From: an uncultured Clostridium sp.
GTDB lineage: Bacteria; Bacillota; Clostridia; Clostridiales; Clostridiaceae
Length of the DNA: 35,080 bases
Assembly (NCBI GenBank): GCA_902785295.1
Contig: CACZYK010000032.1
Span: 1 to 35,080, forward strand
Reading direction: 5' to 3'
The notes beneath the pieces were generated by a model. It ran no database searches, was not told the origin of the DNA, and worked only from the letters and a program-made list of their open reading frames with translations. Of this stretch, positions 14,354-27,536 are shown piece after piece. Numbering within the stretch: the stretch's first letter is position 1; the number at the start of each line of letters is the position of its first letter. The position numbers and the translations under genes are program-made.

Positions 14354-14400
14354 GAAAAAAGAGTAATAATATTAATTTTAGGAACAGACAAAAAGCAAAA
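14354..14400 (+). pseudogene. Remnant of a copy of the 142-aa membrane-protein gene
   Basis: Bases 14375-14400 are identical over 26 bases to 17901-17926 inside the 142-aa gene. Bases 14354-14376 nearly match the first codons of that gene (17627-17650: one A fewer and one substitution). The order is the same but about 250 bases between the two parts are missing. The simplest reading is a second copy of the small gene behind the adhesin that suffered a large internal deletion, leaving about 47 bases that do not encode anything. Confidence 0.6.
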
Positions 14401-14440
14401 AACCTGTAAGATGTTATAAATTAAGTCTTACAGGTTTTTT
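14397..14440 (+). terminator. Terminator after the giant adhesin
   Basis: AACCTGTAAGA (14401-14411) pairs with TCTTACAGGTT (14426-14436) and the stem extends through A and T runs. Six T residues follow the GC-rich part (14435-14440). Confidence 0.92.
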
Positions 14441-14471: not shown

Positions 14472-14500
14472 TTGACATAGTATCAATTATATGTTATAAT
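14472..14500 (+). promoter_or_regulatory. Consensus promoter of the caspase-like gene
   Basis: TTGACA (14472-14477), 17 bases, TATAAT (14495-14500): a perfect match to the vegetative consensus. The start point should lie near 14507, leaving about 27 bases of leader. Confidence 0.85.
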
Positions 14501-14533
14501 TATAAAAATAATTTTTTTAAGGGGGAAGGTTAT

Positions 14534-17500
14534 ATGAGGAAAATTAAGAAACTATTAACATTTAAGTACTTAAGTTGTTTGTTAACCTTAATATTAGTAT
14601 TAGGAAGCAATGTAAGTGCTTATGCTACTGAAACCTCACAAGATGGAATTTCAGTTCAAGTAAACTTTAACAAGGAAGAAGCTTATGATAAAGGGGAAGA
14701 AGTAGAAGCATCTATTATTATAAGTAATAATAATGATTTTGCCGTAAATAATATAAAGATAAAAACAGATATACCTGATGATTTTAAAATCAAAAATGAA
14801 TCAGAAGAAAATATTAATCTTGAAAAGCTTAATCCTCAAGAATCAAAAACTGTAACTTTAACATTAGTAGCTAAAAAATCTCAAGAAGAAAATAGTAACA
14901 TAGAAACTAACACAGCTGAAAATGAAGAAAACAACGGAAAAGAAACCGTTGTAAAAAATGAACAAAATAAAGAAAATAATAAAAATCAAAATATTACCAG
15001 TAATAATAAAAATCAAAATATCAACAATAATAATACAAAGCAAAATATTAAAAATGGAGCTGCTAAAACAGGTGATAACAACTCACTAATAATTTGGTCA
15101 GTTATATTAATAGTTTCATTATTAGTAATTTGTTCAGGAATTATATTAAAGAAAAAGAAATTTATAAAATTATTTTCAATTTTATTAGGAACAATATTTT
15201 TTGGAAGTTTCTTTTATGGAATTGATGTAAAAGCATCAGAATTATATCAAAATAATATTACAGTAAAAAACAATTTTAAATATGATGAAAAAGATTATGA
15301 AATTACAGTAAATATAAGCTATGAATATGAAATTGAGGAAGAACAACCAAAGCTTGAACTTTCATCAAATATTAGTGAATTTTTAATTCAAGAAGATAAG
15401 CAAGTTTTATATATCTATGCAAAGACTGAATCTCCAGTAGAAAATATAGAACTTTATGAAAAAGGAAATAATGAAAAAATAGCAGATATGTTGGATGATG
15501 GAGCTTATTCTCAAAGTGGAGATGACATTCCTAATGATGGAATATATTCAGCAAAAATACTTTTAAATCCAACAGAAAATACACAATATGAATACTATGC
15601 AATTGCTAAAAATGGAGAAGAAGAAATTAATAGTAACAATATTGTTGTTTATGGATACTTACCAATGCAAGAGGAAAATTTTGATGAAATGGAAAAAGCA
15701 GATGAAGAATTACAACAATTATTATCATCTGAAGAATATAAAAAATTATCAATAGAAGAAAAAGTTCAAAAAGTAGAAGAAAAATTACAAGAATTAGCAA
15801 ATTCAGAATTAATCATAAAAGAATCTATATATTATGATAATGAAAGCAAGTTATATACTTTTTCATATAAATGTGGAGTATATGGAAGCGTAATGGTAGG
15901 AGATTTTAATGATGAATTAGATACAGTAGAAGCAAATGAGGAAACTTCTAATGATATTGAAGAAACAACAGAAATTTTAAAAGAGTCAGAAAGTGAAAAA
16001 TCACTAGAAGAAAATACTTCACAAGATGTTTTAACTGAAGAAGTAAGTGAAGAAAATTCAACTGAAGAAGTAAGTGGAGAAAATTCAATTAAAGAAGAAG
16101 CAAATGAAGAAGAAGCAAATGAAGAAGAAGCAAATAAAGAAAATATATCAGTAAAAGATGATGAGGATATTAAATCAGAAGAAAAAGTATTAACAGATGA
16201 TAAAAATGAAATAAATAATGAAAAAACAACAAATTTTGAAGAAACTAAATTAGAAGAAAATAATCCTCAAAAAATAAGTAAAAATTTATCATTAGATGCA
16301 CAAAAAACTGCAAGTCAAAATAGTTCTATTAAAGCTAAAATATTATATAGTAGAGATGAGGCATCAAGCACTAATGATATATATCAAAAATGGGTTGGAA
16401 TAAAAAATAAGCTAGAAGAAAATAATGTAAAAGTAAATATAGATTCAGATGTAACAATAGAAGATTATAAAACAGCTTTTTCAGGAAATGATTTGGTATT
16501 AGTACATTCACATGGAAGTAGACAAACATATCGCAGTGGATTTTTATGGTTAACTAAAAACACATATTCAGTAGTGTGTTTGAGAGATGAGTCTACTAAA
16601 GAAAAGGATAAAAAGTATAAAGAAGATTTACAACAACATCGTATATTAAAAGCTACAACAGGTGATGGAACATTTTATTGGGTTTTCCCTTCATTTTTTA
16701 ACTACTATTATTCAGGAAGCAAAATAAATGATGCAATAGTATATATGGGAATGTGCTTAGGATTTGGAGAAGGAAATACAACAGATTATACACTTGGTAA
16801 AGCATTAACAGATTCTGGTGCAGCAATAGCTTTAGGATATAGAGAAAGTGTTTATACTTATTACAATGTAGCTATGGCAGAAGAAATTGTAAATCAATTA
16901 ATAGACGGAAAGACTATTGGTGAATCAATTAATGAAGCTATGAAGGTTAATGGAAAAGATGATGTGACTTGGGGACAAAAAAATAATATAAATGATCCAG
17001 AAAAGAAAAAAGCAGTACTTCAGTCTACTGGTAATAAAGAAAAGATTTTATTTAATACTGGAATTTTAAATGGAAGTTTTGAAGAAAGTGCTAATATTTC
17101 AACATCTAAGTGGAGCAATGTAGGAGATGCAAGAATATTACAAAAGCTTGCCGAACTAAAACCAGTAGATGGTTCAAGAATGGCAATAATAACAACAGGT
17201 CTAGGTTCAGCAGAAGAAAGTTATATAAGTGGAACAGAAGGAAGTAGCATTTATCAATATTTCAAAGTGCCTGTAGGTACTAAGTCATTAACATTTTCTT
17301 ATGATATAATATCAGAAGAACCAATGGAGTATGTAGGCAGTATGTTTGATGATAAGTTTGTAGCTGAATTACTAGATGAAAAAGGAAATGTTATAACACA
17401 ATTAACTTTTGAATCTGTAAATACTTCACAATGGTATGAGATTGATGGAATTAATTTTGATGGTGGAGATAATACTACTTACCATACAAAATGGAAAACA

Positions 17501-17623
17501 GTAACTAATAAAGAAATAAGCAAATATTCAGGAAAATTTGTTACATTAAGATTCTCTGTATGGGATACTGGAGATTCAATATATGATACTGCAGTATTAA
17601 TAGATAGTGTTTCTTTAAAGTAA
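14534..17623 (+). CDS. Membrane-anchored caspase-like (CHAT/C11-type) surface protease candidate
   Basis: A 1029-residue protein. Residues 1-32 form a signal peptide. A short Ig-like/DUF11-like domain runs to about 115, followed by an Asn/Glu-rich linker. AAKTGD (176-181), a hydrophobic stretch (185-205) and KKKK then look like a degenerate cell-wall sorting signal. They lead straight into a second signal-peptide-like segment (210-236, ending VKASE). After that come a beta-sandwich region, an acidic repeat linker (about 455-590) and a caspase-like domain (about 598-820). In that domain His660 in VHSHG and Cys741 in YMGMCLGF form the expected dyad. A jelly-roll-like domain (about 838-1029) closes the protein. 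There is no terminal sorting signal, so the two internal segments probably hold it as a membrane hairpin with both ends outside. Proteolysis is inferred from the dyad; a non-peptidase role is possible. It has its own promoter and a G-rich ribosome binding site at 14521-14529. Confidence 0.75.
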   Translation: MRKIKKLLTFKYLSCLLTLILVLGSNVSAYATETSQDGISVQVNFNKEEAYDKGEEVEASIIISNNNDFAVNNIKIKTDIPDDFKIKNESEENINLEKLNPQESKTVTLTLVAKKSQEENSNIETNTAENEENNGKETVVKNEQNKENNKNQNITSNNKNQNINNNNTKQNIKNGAAKTGDNNSLIIWSVILIVSLLVICSGIILKKKKFIKLFSILLGTIFFGSFFYGIDVKASELYQNNITVKNNFKYDEKDYEITVNISYEYEIEEEQPKLELSSNISEFLIQEDKQVLYIYAKTESPVENIELYEKGNNEKIADMLDDGAYSQSGDDIPNDGIYSAKILLNPTENTQYEYYAIAKNGEEEINSNNIVVYGYLPMQEENFDEMEKADEELQQLLSSEEYKKLSIEEKVQKVEEKLQELANSELIIKESIYYDNESKLYTFSYKCGVYGSVMVGDFNDELDTVEANEETSNDIEETTEILKESESEKSLEENTSQDVLTEEVSEENSTEEVSGENSIKEEANEEEANEEEANKENISVKDDEDIKSEEKVLTDDKNEINNEKTTNFEETKLEENNPQKISKNLSLDAQKTASQNSSIKAKILYSRDEASSTNDIYQKWVGIKNKLEENNVKVNIDSDVTIEDYKTAFSGNDLVLVHSHGSRQTYRSGFLWLTKNTYSVVCLRDESTKEKDKKYKEDLQQHRILKATTGDGTFYWVFPSFFNYYYSGSKINDAIVYMGMCLGFGEGNTTDYTLGKALTDSGAAIALGYRESVYTYYNVAMAEEIVNQLIDGKTIGESINEAMKVNGKDDVTWGQKNNINDPEKKKAVLQSTGNKEKILFNTGILNGSFEESANISTSKWSNVGDARILQKLAELKPVDGSRMAIITTGLGSAEESYISGTEGSSIYQYFKVPVGTKSLTFSYDIISEEPMEYVGSMFDDKFVAELLDEKGNVITQLTFESVNTSQWYEIDGINFDGGDNTTYHTKWKTVTNKEISKYSGKFVTLRFSVWDTGDSIYDTAVLIDSVSLK
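16034..16138 (+). repeat. In-frame tandem repeats in the acidic linker
   Basis: Two 27-bp units (16034-16060, 16061-16087), each coding for TEEVS(E/G)ENS, are followed by three 15-bp units (16094-16138) coding for EEANE, EEANE and EEANK. All keep the frame, so slippage would change linker length without breaking the protein. Confidence 0.85.
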
Positions 17624-17624
17624 T

Positions 17625-18053
17625 ATGAAAAAAAGAATAATAATATTAATAATTCTAATTATTATGGGTGCTATAGGATTAAAAGTTATGTTTGGAAGTA
17701 ATAAATTATTTGAAGTAACAATAAATAAAAAAGAAATTAAGTTATCTAATGAAAAAGAAGAAGAGATAAAAGAAACAGTACTTCAAGAGCTTAATACAAA
17801 ATCAGAAGTTGATTTAATGTTAACAAATGATGATATAAAGAACATGAAAAAAAATGGCTTGTTTATAAGTTGCAAATATACTAAAGAAAAAAGCATAAAT
17901 ATTTTAGGAACAGACAAAAAGCAAAATATAAATAGCTGGATGGTAGTTTCTAATTCAAAACAAAATTATATAATAGCTGTTATAGACAAAAAAACTTATA
18001 TTTTTAATTTAAGTAAAAAGAAACAAAAAGAACTATTAACATTAATAGAATAA
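17625..18053 (+). CDS. Small membrane-anchored protein of unknown function
   Basis: A 142-residue product I do not recognise. One hydrophobic N-terminal segment (about residues 4-24) follows a basic start and could be an uncleaved signal anchor. The rest is a Lys/Glu-rich extracytoplasmic domain with a single Cys. The start codon lies one base after the stop of the caspase-like gene and has no good ribosome binding site of its own. Translation is therefore probably coupled to the upstream gene and the two products likely act together. A terminator follows directly. A deleted fragment of a related copy lies at 14354-14400 behind the giant adhesin, suggesting that this type of small gene accompanies large surface proteins here. 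Inhibitor, chaperone or anchor are all possible; nothing in the sequence chooses among them. Confidence 0.7.
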   Translation: MKKRIIILIILIIMGAIGLKVMFGSNKLFEVTINKKEIKLSNEKEEEIKETVLQELNTKSEVDLMLTNDDIKNMKKNGLFISCKYTKEKSINILGTDKKQNINSWMVVSNSKQNYIIAVIDKKTYIFNLSKKKQKELLTLIE

Positions 18054-18059
18054 AGAAAG

Positions 18060-18107
18060 AAGGTATCGCATTAGCACTTAAAAACTGCTTACGATACCTT
18101 ATTTTTT
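18060..18107 (+). terminator. Terminator after the caspase-like operon
   Basis: AAGGTATCG (18060-18068) pairs perfectly with CGATACCTT (18092-18100). The loop can form an inner AGCA/TGCT stem, and a T run follows at 18102-18107. Confidence 0.9.
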
Positions 18108-25836: not shown

Positions 25837-26709
25837 ATGAAAAGAAAGTTGTCAATTATTCTTATGTCATTAATATTTTTATCAGGATTTGGAATTATGC
25901 TTTATCCTGTAATTAGTAATGCTTATATGGAACATCAACAGAAGATTATAATTAACAGTTATGAAAAAAAAGTTGAAAAAATGCCCGAAAATACTAAAAA
26001 TGAAGAGTTAGAGCGTGCAAGTGACTATAATAAACTTTTAATTGGAACTGCTATTGTAACAGACCCTTTTGACCCAGAAGCTCAAAAAAGGCTTGAAGAA
26101 AGCTCTGATTATTTTAATATTTTAAATCTTGACGAAAAAGGTTTAATGGGTTATGTTGTTATTCCTAAAATAGATGTTAATCTTCCTATATATCATGGAA
26201 CTTCTGAGGAGGTTTTGCAAAAAGGGGTTGGGCATTTACAAAACACTTCTCTTCCCGTTGGAGGAGAAAGCACTCATGCTGTATTATCAGGTCATACTGG
26301 TCTTTCTTCTGCAAAGTTATTTACGGATTTGGATAAGCTTGAAGAAGGAAATATATTTTATATAAAAACCTTAGGAGAAACTTTTGCTTATGAAGTAGAC
26401 CAAATAAAAATAGTAGAGCCACATGAAACTTCAGATTTATTAATTGAATCTGATAAAGATTATGTAACATTAGTAACATGTACTCCTTATGGTATAAACT
26501 CTCACCGTTTATTGGTGCGTGGAACTAGAATTCCTTATACAGAAGAAGTTGAAAAAGAGATTAAGAAGGAACAAAAAGAAAATGTAGGAAGCACATGGCG
26601 TGATGAGTACTTTAAGGCATTAGCTATTGGATTAGGTGGATTGGCTATCTTAGGAATTATCTTTATAATAGTTGTACTTATTAAAAAGAAGGGAAGGAAA
26701 AAAGAATGA
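25837..26709 (+). CDS. srtC: Class C (pilus-polymerising) sortase 1
   Basis: A 290-residue membrane transpeptidase expected to cut sorting signals and join pilin subunits. It has the class C layout of an N-terminal membrane segment (about 5-27), an extracellular catalytic domain and a C-terminal membrane segment (about 262-284). The lid motif DPF is at 76-78. The catalytic triad is His153 in SGHTG, Cys215 in TLVTCTPYG and Arg224 in SHRLLVRG. The ribosome binding site is GGAGAG just ahead of ATG 25837. Its stop overlaps the start of sortase 2 by four bases (ATGA). It is closely related to sortase 3 at 27567, sharing a stretch of 32 identical bases near 26167. Of the three it is the only one with all class C hallmarks intact and probably carries the polymerising activity. 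Confidence 0.95.
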   Translation: MKRKLSIILMSLIFLSGFGIMLYPVISNAYMEHQQKIIINSYEKKVEKMPENTKNEELERASDYNKLLIGTAIVTDPFDPEAQKRLEESSDYFNILNLDEKGLMGYVVIPKIDVNLPIYHGTSEEVLQKGVGHLQNTSLPVGGESTHAVLSGHTGLSSAKLFTDLDKLEEGNIFYIKTLGETFAYEVDQIKIVEPHETSDLLIESDKDYVTLVTCTPYGINSHRLLVRGTRIPYTEEVEKEIKKEQKENVGSTWRDEYFKALAIGLGGLAILGIIFIIVVLIKKKGRKKE

Positions 26710-27536
26710 AGCAAAAATTAAAATTGATTTTTGTAGGCTTAATGTTTATATTAGGATTAGTTCTTTTTCTATATCCTTTAGCAAATAAATATGAGAATAA
26801 AGTAGAAGTTGAAGAAACTAAAAAGAATTTTGAAAAAACAGTAGAAAAGCTACATGAAGAATCAAATGATGAAGAAAGTCCTTTAAATAGATTATATAGT
26901 GATATGAAAGCTTATAATGAAAAAATTTATAAAGATAATCAATCAGATTTAAAGGACCCTTGGTCTTATCAACAGAGTAGCTTCGATTTAACTCAGTATG
27001 GAGTTGAAGATAATATAATTGGTTATATTGCAGTTCCTCATATGGAAATAGAGCTTCCAATATATTTAGGTGCAAATACTGATAATATGGCAAAAGGTGC
27101 AGTTCATATGAGCCAAACTTCTCTTCCAATTTGTGATATTGAAATTATGGAAATTGGAGATGAGGTTATCATCAAAAACCTTTGGGAAACTTTAAGATAT
27201 CGAGTTTCAGAGATAAAAATAATTAATCCAACAGATTCTCAAGAAGTTCTTATACAGCCTGGAAAAGATATGGTAACTTTAATAACATGCCATCCATACA
27301 CAAAGAATTATAAAAGATATGTTGTTTATTGTGAAAGAGAAAAAGATAATGAAGAAGAAATAAACAATCAAACAATAAGCACAGAAACTGCTACCTCTTC
27401 AAAAGAAGATAAACCTAAAAAATTGTCAGAATCTCAATACATGATATTATTTGACAGATACTCTCCTTTAGTAGGAGTAATAATAATGGGAATTCTTCTT
27501 ATAATAGTAATAGTTACTGGAAAAAAGAAAAAATAG
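26706..27536 (+). CDS. Class C sortase 2, lacking the catalytic histidine
   Basis: A 276-residue protein with class C sortase layout: N-terminal membrane segment (about 5-24), lid motif DPW (84-86), catalytic Cys195 in TLITCHPY, Arg204, and a C-terminal membrane segment (about 252-272). The stretch that carries the catalytic His in both neighbours is missing. After TSLP (138-141) the text goes IC and then straight to DIEIMEIGDEV, about 21 residues shorter than sortases 1 and 3. The remaining His133 in AVHMSQTS corresponds to a structural His in the neighbours, not the catalytic one. The frame is intact on both sides, so this is an in-frame deletion. The product should be unable to perform normal transpeptidation. 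It may be an inactive remnant or a non-catalytic partner. Translation is coupled to sortase 1 by a four-base overlap. Confidence 0.88.
   Translation: MKQKLKLIFVGLMFILGLVLFLYPLANKYENKVEVEETKKNFEKTVEKLHEESNDEESPLNRLYSDMKAYNEKIYKDNQSDLKDPWSYQQSSFDLTQYGVEDNIIGYIAVPHMEIELPIYLGANTDNMAKGAVHMSQTSLPICDIEIMEIGDEVIIKNLWETLRYRVSEIKIINPTDSQEVLIQPGKDMVTLITCHPYTKNYKRYVVYCEREKDNEEEINNQTISTETATSSKEDKPKKLSESQYMILFDRYSPLVGVIIMGILLIIVIVTGKKKK

What the first reader, a model, noticed from the sequence alone, without database searches (positions are those of the whole stretch)
14534..17623. Caspase-like surface protein that looks like two secreted proteins fused in frame
Residues 1-209 read as a complete small wall protein: signal peptide, beta domain, AAKTGD, hydrophobic stretch, KKKK. 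The next residues (210-236) look like a fresh signal peptide ending VKASE, followed by a large ectodomain with His660/Cys741 of a caspase-like domain. The fusion would turn a sorting signal plus a signal peptide into a membrane hairpin that displays a protease next to a pilus assembly line. I know of no described pilus locus with this arrangement.
Basis: partly seen in the sequence, partly recalled or inferred. Interest (0 to 1): 0.75.

Follow-up and report, generated by a model that had tools for sequence, protein, structure and literature searches.

The report
Caspase-like protease with N-terminal sorting signal
One bacterial gene welds a small cell-wall protein, anchor tail included, to the front of a secreted caspase-like protease, so the protease is probably held at the cell surface by its front end, much as certain streptococcal antibody-cutting enzymes are.

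Summary
ORF 14534-17623 (1029 aa) is one frame: signal peptide, NEW3-like domain, AAKTGD sorting signal, membrane helix, KKKK (1-209), then a signal-peptide-like helix ending VKA|SE (206-234), then the ectodomain. No start codon lies in frame between codons 150 and 318, so the second half is not made alone. The ectodomain holds a caspase-like unit: His660-Gly661 and Cys741 are invariant in 10 of 10 aligned rows; one relative passes Pfam's C25 cut-off. Nine relatives have this unit behind other front ends, none with a sorting signal, which supports a fusion. But neither layout nor fusion is unprecedented. Streptococcal M26 proteases have an N-terminal LPXTG and are cut 56 residues later; here the predicted site is 55 later. 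A Lactococcus pilus cluster has a published fusion with an internal sorting signal. The gene has its own promoter-like site between two terminator-like hairpins and a non-pilin-like motif, so the link to pilus assembly is weak. Most likely: an M26-like N-terminal sorting module on a clan CD protease. No structure could be predicted.

The parts
14472..14500 (+). promoter-like site TTGACA-17-TATAAT with TG before the -10, just upstream of the fused gene
   Evidence: 12 of 12 matches, the only perfect one of 31 sites; 33.7 sites of the looser kind expected by chance; the call gives no expectation for perfect ones
14520..14529 (+). ribosome-binding site AGGGGGAAGG before ATG 14534
   Evidence: sequence
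14534..17623 (+). fused ORF, 1029 aa
   Evidence: no in-frame start codon between codons 150 and 318
14534..14626 (+). residues 1-31: signal peptide
14690..14869 (+). residues 53-112: NEW3/NPCBM_assoc-like domain, below Pfam cut-off
   Evidence: E 0.0036, 17.9 bits, cut-off 24.4 (fragment); whole protein 16.1 bits
15059..15160 (+). residues 176-209: AAKTGD sorting signal, membrane helix, KKKK
   Evidence: LPXTG_anchor model below cut-off 15.9: 13.6 bits for the fragment, 10.4 for the whole protein
15149..15235 (+). residues 206-234: second signal-peptide-like element, predicted signal peptidase I site VKA|SE
15488..15556 (+). residues 319-341: choice-of-anchor-X-like motif, in a region shared with relatives
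   Evidence: 14.5 bits whole, 15.6 fragment, cut-off 25; one relative passes the cut-off (25.6)
15899..16324 (+). residues 456-597: acidic low-complexity linker
16325..17056 (+). residues 598-841: caspase-like (clan CD type) domain, His660 and Cys741
17057..17620 (+). residues 842-1029: choice-of-anchor-L domain
   Evidence: 31.2 bits for residues 842-1029 and 27.9 for 598-1029, cut-off 27; not listed when the whole protein is scanned; 51% identical to the SLH-anchored relative
17625..18053 (+). 142-aa ORF with an N-terminal hydrophobic stretch, starting one base after the stop codon; probable second gene of the unit, function unknown
14397..14440 (+). terminator-like hairpin after the upstream adhesin gene
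   Evidence: seen by eye; -19.3 kcal/mol, z -6.32, 0 of 200 shuffles as low; not listed by the consensus scan
18060..18105 (+). terminator-like hairpin after the 142-aa ORF
   Evidence: seen by eye; -18.4 kcal/mol, z -6.55, 0 of 200 shuffles as low; not listed by the consensus scan
14355..14400 (+). deleted remnant of a second copy of the 142-aa ORF
   Evidence: score 76.0 against a maximum of 58.4 in 300 shuffles and 53.0 for the best non-overlapping window of 1726

Best explanation
The gene is a true in-frame fusion that gives a caspase-like surface protease an N-terminal sorting module laid out like that of streptococcal M26 proteases. Shown: the sequence layout, the single reading frame, the conserved His/Cys pair, and that relatives carry the same catalytic unit behind other front ends. 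Inferred: the first signal peptide starts export; helix 186-205 stops it; KKKK stays in the cytosol; helix 210-226 restarts export of the large ectodomain. A sortase cuts AAKT|G and fixes the N-terminal piece to the wall, and signal peptidase may cut VKA|SE, leaving the protease held by the hairpin, by association with the N-terminal piece, or released. The ectodomain then cuts proteins near the cell; the substrate is unknown.
For: One frame and no internal start. Front ends of the nine relatives compared: 4 an N-terminal membrane helix, 3 a lipobox-type start, 1 SLH domains, 1 a signal peptide alone, 0 a sorting-signal-like element in the first 300 residues (lipoboxes read by eye). His660, Gly661, Cys741 and two glycines are the only invariant columns of 10 rows; I cut the rows around the HG and Cys that I saw, so this is not a blind count. 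C-terminal domain 51% identical to that of an SLH-anchored relative outside the class. One relative passes Pfam C25 (28.3 bits, cut-off 23) and matches the five-row family profile, which did not contain it, at 7.1e-32. M26 layout: passages and one M26 N-terminus with LPQTG, helix, SKKHRKK, helix, VEVAA. Spacing from motif glycine to the small-residue site: 55 here, 51 in that M26 (M26 site chosen by eye); 56 quoted for the family. Two same-genome anchors of like tail length.
Against: AAKTG lacks the proline of LPXTG and the anchor model stays under its cut-off. No other copy of the caspase-like unit in 68 genus genomes or 225 order genomes, and none of the nine wider relatives compared has the fusion, so conservation cannot vouch for function. 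The CHAT match of the window protein is below cut-off 24 (17.1 bits for the domain, 12.2 for the whole). The profiles find no solved structure of this kind. No structure model. Only one M26 protein was inspected.
Confidence: 0.6

Rival explanations
1. Polyprotein: the chain is cut efficiently (signal peptidase I at VKA|SE, sortase at AAKT|G), so one gene simply delivers two separate products in equal amounts, a wall-linked small protein and a free secreted protease.
For: VKA|SE fits the -3,-1 rule (recalled) and the element passes the same scan as N-terminal signal peptides of neighbouring genes. The relative in MT835937.1 has a signal peptide and no visible anchor. Precedent: fused SpaCB of a Lactococcus pilus cluster, which its authors propose is split at an internal LPSTGGSG, perhaps to control the ratio of the two parts (PMC5152845 section 16; proposed there, not shown).
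Against: 8 of the 9 relatives keep the unit attached by some anchor, which favours attachment; the published M26 case is cut and yet described as linked to the cell.
Confidence: 0.25
2. Recent accidental fusion or degenerate gene: two unrelated genes joined by a local rearrangement with no selected function.
For: The fusion was seen in this genome only; the spot is rearranged, with a deleted remnant of the neighbouring 142-aa ORF 3.3 kb upstream that keeps a 26-base exact stretch.
Against: 1029 codons open, His and Cys kept, perfect promoter match and good ribosome site, junction exactly at the KKKK end of the sorting signal.
Confidence: 0.1
3. Assembly artefact joining two loci.
For: No independent copy found; draft genome of 151 contigs.
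Against: The C half has no start codon of its own before codon 319, so a wrong join would have had to remove a stop and a start and keep the frame; no long repeat at the junction.
Confidence: 0.03
4. Catalytically dead sensor or scaffold that only looks like a protease (can hold together with any of the above).
For: Weak Pfam match; some members of this superfamily are inactive (recalled).
Against: His-Gly and Cys are among only five invariant positions in 10 diverged rows.
Confidence: 0.12

Closest known systems
Streptococcal M26 metalloproteases (IgA1 protease/ZmpA, ZmpB, ZmpC, ZmpD)
   Same: N-terminal sorting motif before a large surface protease; in the one inspected: signal peptide, motif, membrane helix, basic patch, second helix. 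Motif-to-cut spacing 56 published, 55 to the predicted site here.
   Different: Zinc protease with G5 domain there, caspase-like domain here; no sequence relation seen; LPXTG there, AAKTG here; NEW3-like domain between signal peptide and motif here.
Fused pilin SpaCB of the Lactococcus lactis pSH74 pilus cluster (PMC5152845)
   Same: Two surface proteins fused in one gene of a pilus cluster, with an internal sorting motif between them; relatives of the parts are separate genes elsewhere.
   Different: Both parts are pilins and the second also ends in an LPDTGE anchor; no protease. Whether a second signal peptide follows the internal motif is not stated in the section read.
   Same: Caspase-like unit followed by a choice-of-anchor-L domain 51% identical to the window's.
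   Different: SLH domains at the front instead of a sorting signal hairpin.
Clan CD peptidases C25 (gingipains) and CHAT
   Same: His-Gly ... Cys pair; one relative passes the C25 cut-off.
   Different: Window protein is below the CHAT cut-off and gives no C25 match; fold not modelled.

Membership tests
M26-type N-terminal sorting module (as layout) | sorting motif near the N-terminus before the catalytic part | tested here: met
   AAKTG at 176-180 with helix and basic patch; yardstick M26 LPQTG at 100-104
M26-type N-terminal sorting module (as layout) | second hydrophobic segment and cut about 56 residues after the motif | tested here: inconclusive
   segment and predicted site present, 55 residues; cleavage not testable here
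M26 metalloprotease family | Pfam M26 match | tested here: not met
   no M26_C match in the own genome and no M26 model in the protein's Pfam list
Clan CD (caspase-like) cysteine peptidase | His and Cys dyad | tested here: met
   HSHG 658-661, YMGMC 737-741, H660 and C741 invariant in 10 of 10 rows; rows were cut around these motifs
Clan CD (caspase-like) cysteine peptidase | family profile match over cut-off | tested here: inconclusive
   window protein CHAT 17.1 bits, cut-off 24; of 10 rows 1 matched CHAT and 1 matched C25; G979 C25 28.3, cut-off 23; no PDB match of this kind by profile
Clan CD (caspase-like) cysteine peptidase | caspase-type fold | not testable with these tools
   structure prediction switched off
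Sortase substrate | xxxTG-like motif, helix, basic tail of normal length | tested here: met
   32 residues K178-K209; two own-genome KTGD anchors 32 and 31
Sortase substrate | curated anchor model over cut-off | tested here: not met
   TIGR01167 13.6 bits (fragment) and 10.4 (whole), cut-off 15.9
Sortase substrate | cut by a sortase of this organism | not testable with these tools
   needs experiment
Pilus subunit of the local cluster | pilin-type motif or co-transcription with the pilus genes | tested here: inconclusive
   local motifs IPSTG, LPISG, LPQTG (read) against AAKTG; promoter-like site and hairpins suggest a separate unit; transcription not testable here

The most novel reading that the evidence does not exclude
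Joining the poly-lysine end of a sorting signal to the lysine-rich start of a signal peptide is a repeatable route by which bacteria turn a secreted protease into an N-terminally sorted one; it happened here with a caspase-like enzyme and may be how the M26 module arose, and the product is a bacterial polyprotein cut by a sortase on one side of the membrane hairpin and by signal peptidase on the other.
Probability: 0.28. Interest if true: 0.7.

Novelty: new variant of a known kind. Interest (0 to 1): 0.47.

Why it matters
It shows the N-terminal sorting layout of streptococcal IgA1 proteases on an unrelated enzyme, in a genome of another class than the M26 genome met here, with the two source parts still recognisable. 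That offers a way to ask how such modules arise and why a protease would be sorted by its front end. It also points to a little-described family of secreted caspase-like proteins, spread thinly through this phylum, whose front-end anchors differ from member to member.

Tried and rejected
Close homologues by peptide pattern: none in genome contigs or viral contigs; an alignment search there was not possible. Plasmids: none for the ectodomain or the NEW3 part. Separate N-half gene: searched with the NEW3 part, 1 of 67 genus genomes (self) and 2 of 371 class genomes (self and a NEW3-like stretch in G380, 28% identity, in a long ORF that looks by eye like a PHP-type protein). So a stand-alone relative of residues 1-209 was not found. 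The region 234-469 alone was searched in the own genome only (self). The 142-aa partner: 1 of 67 (self), no Pfam match; a 151-aa ORF behind the G360 gene is not related to it.

Rows dropped before counting: of the 8 of 391 class matches, one is self; G211 is a match in an ORF that looks like a purine-synthesis enzyme; G320, which I did not read, matches the same query stretch with a like open frame and was dropped on that ground; G411 matched in the choice-of-anchor-L part, and in the 802 residues of its frame that I saw there is no caspase-like part by eye; G360 has the caspase-like and anchor-L parts in broken frames and was left out of the alignment. Of the 7 of 398 phylum matches, one is self and G929 lies in an ORF that looks like a metallo-hydrolase. 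The ten rows of alignment A3 are the window, MT835937.1, G139, G192, G424, G979, G618, G840, G927, G838. For MT835937.1 and G979 I chose an internal ATG as the start.

Weak hits to residues 102-252 in the own genome and three relatives are low-complexity linker plus anchor. N-terminal residues 1-60 match an EF0750-type sortase-dependent surface protein model far below its cut-off (20.2 against 47). Considered and rejected: two overlapping genes with internal start. The likeness of AAKTGD to the genome's other anchors rests on a pattern that asked for KTGDxN with some codons excluded, so KTGD in them is by construction and other anchor types of this genome were not catalogued; a further anchor-like end (VDKTG) was met.

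Full-text searches whose listed papers showed me no caspase-like protein with an N-terminal sorting signal. They cover open-licence papers only; some searches listed 20 of 38, 34 and 61 papers; I saw listings and starts of abstracts. From seven papers I called up passages: PMC9637739, PMC2705793, PMC7695701, PMC7939560, PMC2225412, PMC5152845 (its section 16 read whole) and PMC4572922. PMC4572922 and one paragraph of PMC5152845 use 'N-terminal LPxTG' for what read as ordinary anchors.

Changed on checking: the SpaCB precedent was added; best explanation 0.62 to 0.60, polyprotein rival 0.22 to 0.25, novel case 0.25 to 0.28 (a further internal-sorting-signal fusion) with interest if true 0.72 to 0.70, overall interest 0.50 to 0.47.
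Full report
What is there. The window is a whole contig (C32) of a 3.2 Mb draft genome. Positions 14534-17623 hold one open frame of 1029 codons. Residues 1-31 are a signal peptide; 53-112 resemble the NEW3 domain (E 0.0036, under Pfam's cut-off); 113-175 are an N/E/K-rich linker; 176-181 read AAKTGD; a strong hydrophobic helix and KKKK end at 209; a second hydrophobic helix follows and ends VKA|SE at 234. After that come a region with a choice-of-anchor-X-like motif (below cut-off), a stretch that looks helical, an acidic linker, a caspase-like domain (598-841) and a choice-of-anchor-L domain. The last passes its NCBIfam cut-off of 27 when 842-1029 or 598-1029 is scanned (31.2 and 27.9 bits) but is not listed for the whole protein.

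Is it two proteins in one? Three facts say yes. The sorting tail K178-K209 has 32 residues; of five places in the own genome that fit a DNA pattern for KTGDxN, three lie in open frames of that reading, this one and two that end a protein, and the tails of those two have 32 and 31 residues; the other two places are not open in that frame. The element 206-234 is the only internal signal-peptide-like element that a simple scan found in 18 window genes (the scan is not sensitive). And between codons 150 and 318 there is no ATG, GTG or TTG in frame, so the two plans are made as one chain.

Relatives of the second half. In the genus (68 genomes) and order (225) only this genome has a match to the caspase-like unit. 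Wider samples gave relatives in class and phylum, and a record labelled phage, MT835937.1, gave another; its other long ORFs look by eye like bacterial housekeeping genes. After dropping unrelated rows (listed under Tried and rejected) nine relatives were compared. His660, Gly661 and Cys741 are invariant in 10 of 10 rows, with two glycines as the only other invariant columns; I cut the rows around the motifs that I saw. One relative, G979, passes Pfam's C25 cut-off; the window protein matches CHAT below cut-off; of the 10 rows, 1 matched CHAT and 1 C25 at all. Sequence profiles find no solved structure of this kind. G618 has the caspase-like unit and a choice-of-anchor-L domain 51% identical to the window's behind SLH domains. 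The front ends of the nine are: four an N-terminal membrane helix (three of them after a zinc ribbon, of which two pass the Pfam cut-off), three lipobox-type starts, one SLH protein, one signal peptide alone. None has a sorting-signal-like element in its first 300 residues. So the ectodomain is a portable unit and the front is where anchors differ; here the front is a small wall protein.

How it probably works. Export starts at the first signal peptide, stops at helix 186-205, and restarts at helix 210-226 with the lysines in the cytosol. The ectodomain ends up outside. This is the layout of streptococcal M26 proteases. A passage of PMC9637739 says these enzymes share an N-terminal LPXTG recognised by sortase A and are cut 56 residues downstream; passages of PMC7695701 give the mature pneumococcal enzyme as residues 154-1963, linked to the cell by sortase A; passages of PMC7939560 list IgA1 protease, ZmpB, ZmpC and ZmpD with an amino-terminal LPXTG; a passage of PMC2705793 reports one in S. 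suis. Bender and Weiser 2006 was seen only as a reference. From the motif glycine to the last alanine it has 51 residues; the window protein has 55 to its predicted site. No sequence relation is claimed; the likeness is of layout. Whether sortase and signal peptidase cut here, and whether the protease then stays attached, is not shown.

A second precedent. PMC5152845 (section 16 read whole) describes a Lactococcus pilus cluster in which tip and base pilins are fused (SpaCB) with an internal LPSTGGSG that the authors propose is cut by a sortase; they suggest the fusion may set the ratio of the two parts. So a fusion of two surface proteins around an internal sorting motif in a pilus cluster is in print, and a polyprotein reading of the present gene deserves weight.

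Link to the pilus. The gene lies between a 2676-aa adhesin and an 1800-aa SpaA/Cna_B protein, upstream of a pilin-backbone gene and three sortase genes. But it has a perfect promoter match of its own (the call gives no expectation for perfect matches) and lies between two hairpins with T runs that fold far better than shuffles (z -6.32 and -6.55, 0 of 200 each), though the consensus terminator scan listed neither. Its motif is unlike the local IPSTG, LPISG and LPQTG. I read it as a separate two-gene unit that sits in the cluster; transcription was not tested. The 142-aa ORF starts one base after the stop codon; its role is unknown. A deleted remnant of a second copy of it lies at 14355-14400, so this spot has been rearranged. 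In G927 the caspase-like gene is followed on the same strand by a serpin gene (E 1.1e-100), which makes a protease-inhibitor pairing an idea worth testing for the 142-aa protein; there is no direct evidence.

How the fusion may have arisen. The join falls in AAG AAA AAG AAA, which can serve both as the end of a sorting tail and as the start of a signal peptide. Recombination between two such lysine runs would fuse the genes in frame. This is inference; neither parent gene was found.

Verdict. The new points are the enzyme type, the still visible two-part make-up with a second signal peptide, and the family with differing anchors. Interest 0.47; new variant of a known kind.

Noticed in passing
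window 26706-27536: The middle of the three sortases lacks a stretch of about 21 residues that holds the GHTGL histidine of its two neighbours, while the TLxTC cysteine and the arginine region are kept (alignment); it may be inactive or specialised.
   Followed up: partly
window 14355-14400 and 17625-18053: Deleted remnant of the 142-aa ORF just after the 2676-aa adhesin gene, with a 26-base exact match to the intact ORF.
   Followed up: yes
L035 425-1621 (- strand): Serpin gene downstream of a caspase-like gene in G927, on the same strand: possible protease-inhibitor pair.
   Followed up: partly
L009 (MT835937.1): Record deposited as 'Bacteriophage sp.' whose long ORFs look like bacterial chromosome genes by eye; probably mislabelled.
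   Followed up: no
L010, L016, L033: Relatives combining the caspase-like unit with a VWA domain, membrane helices and zinc ribbons; an unusual make-up that may be a surface sensor or recruiter.
   Followed up: partly
L037 3903-7021: In G360 the SLH, caspase-like and choice-of-anchor-L parts lie in successive broken frames, apparently a decayed gene or sequencing errors.
   Followed up: no
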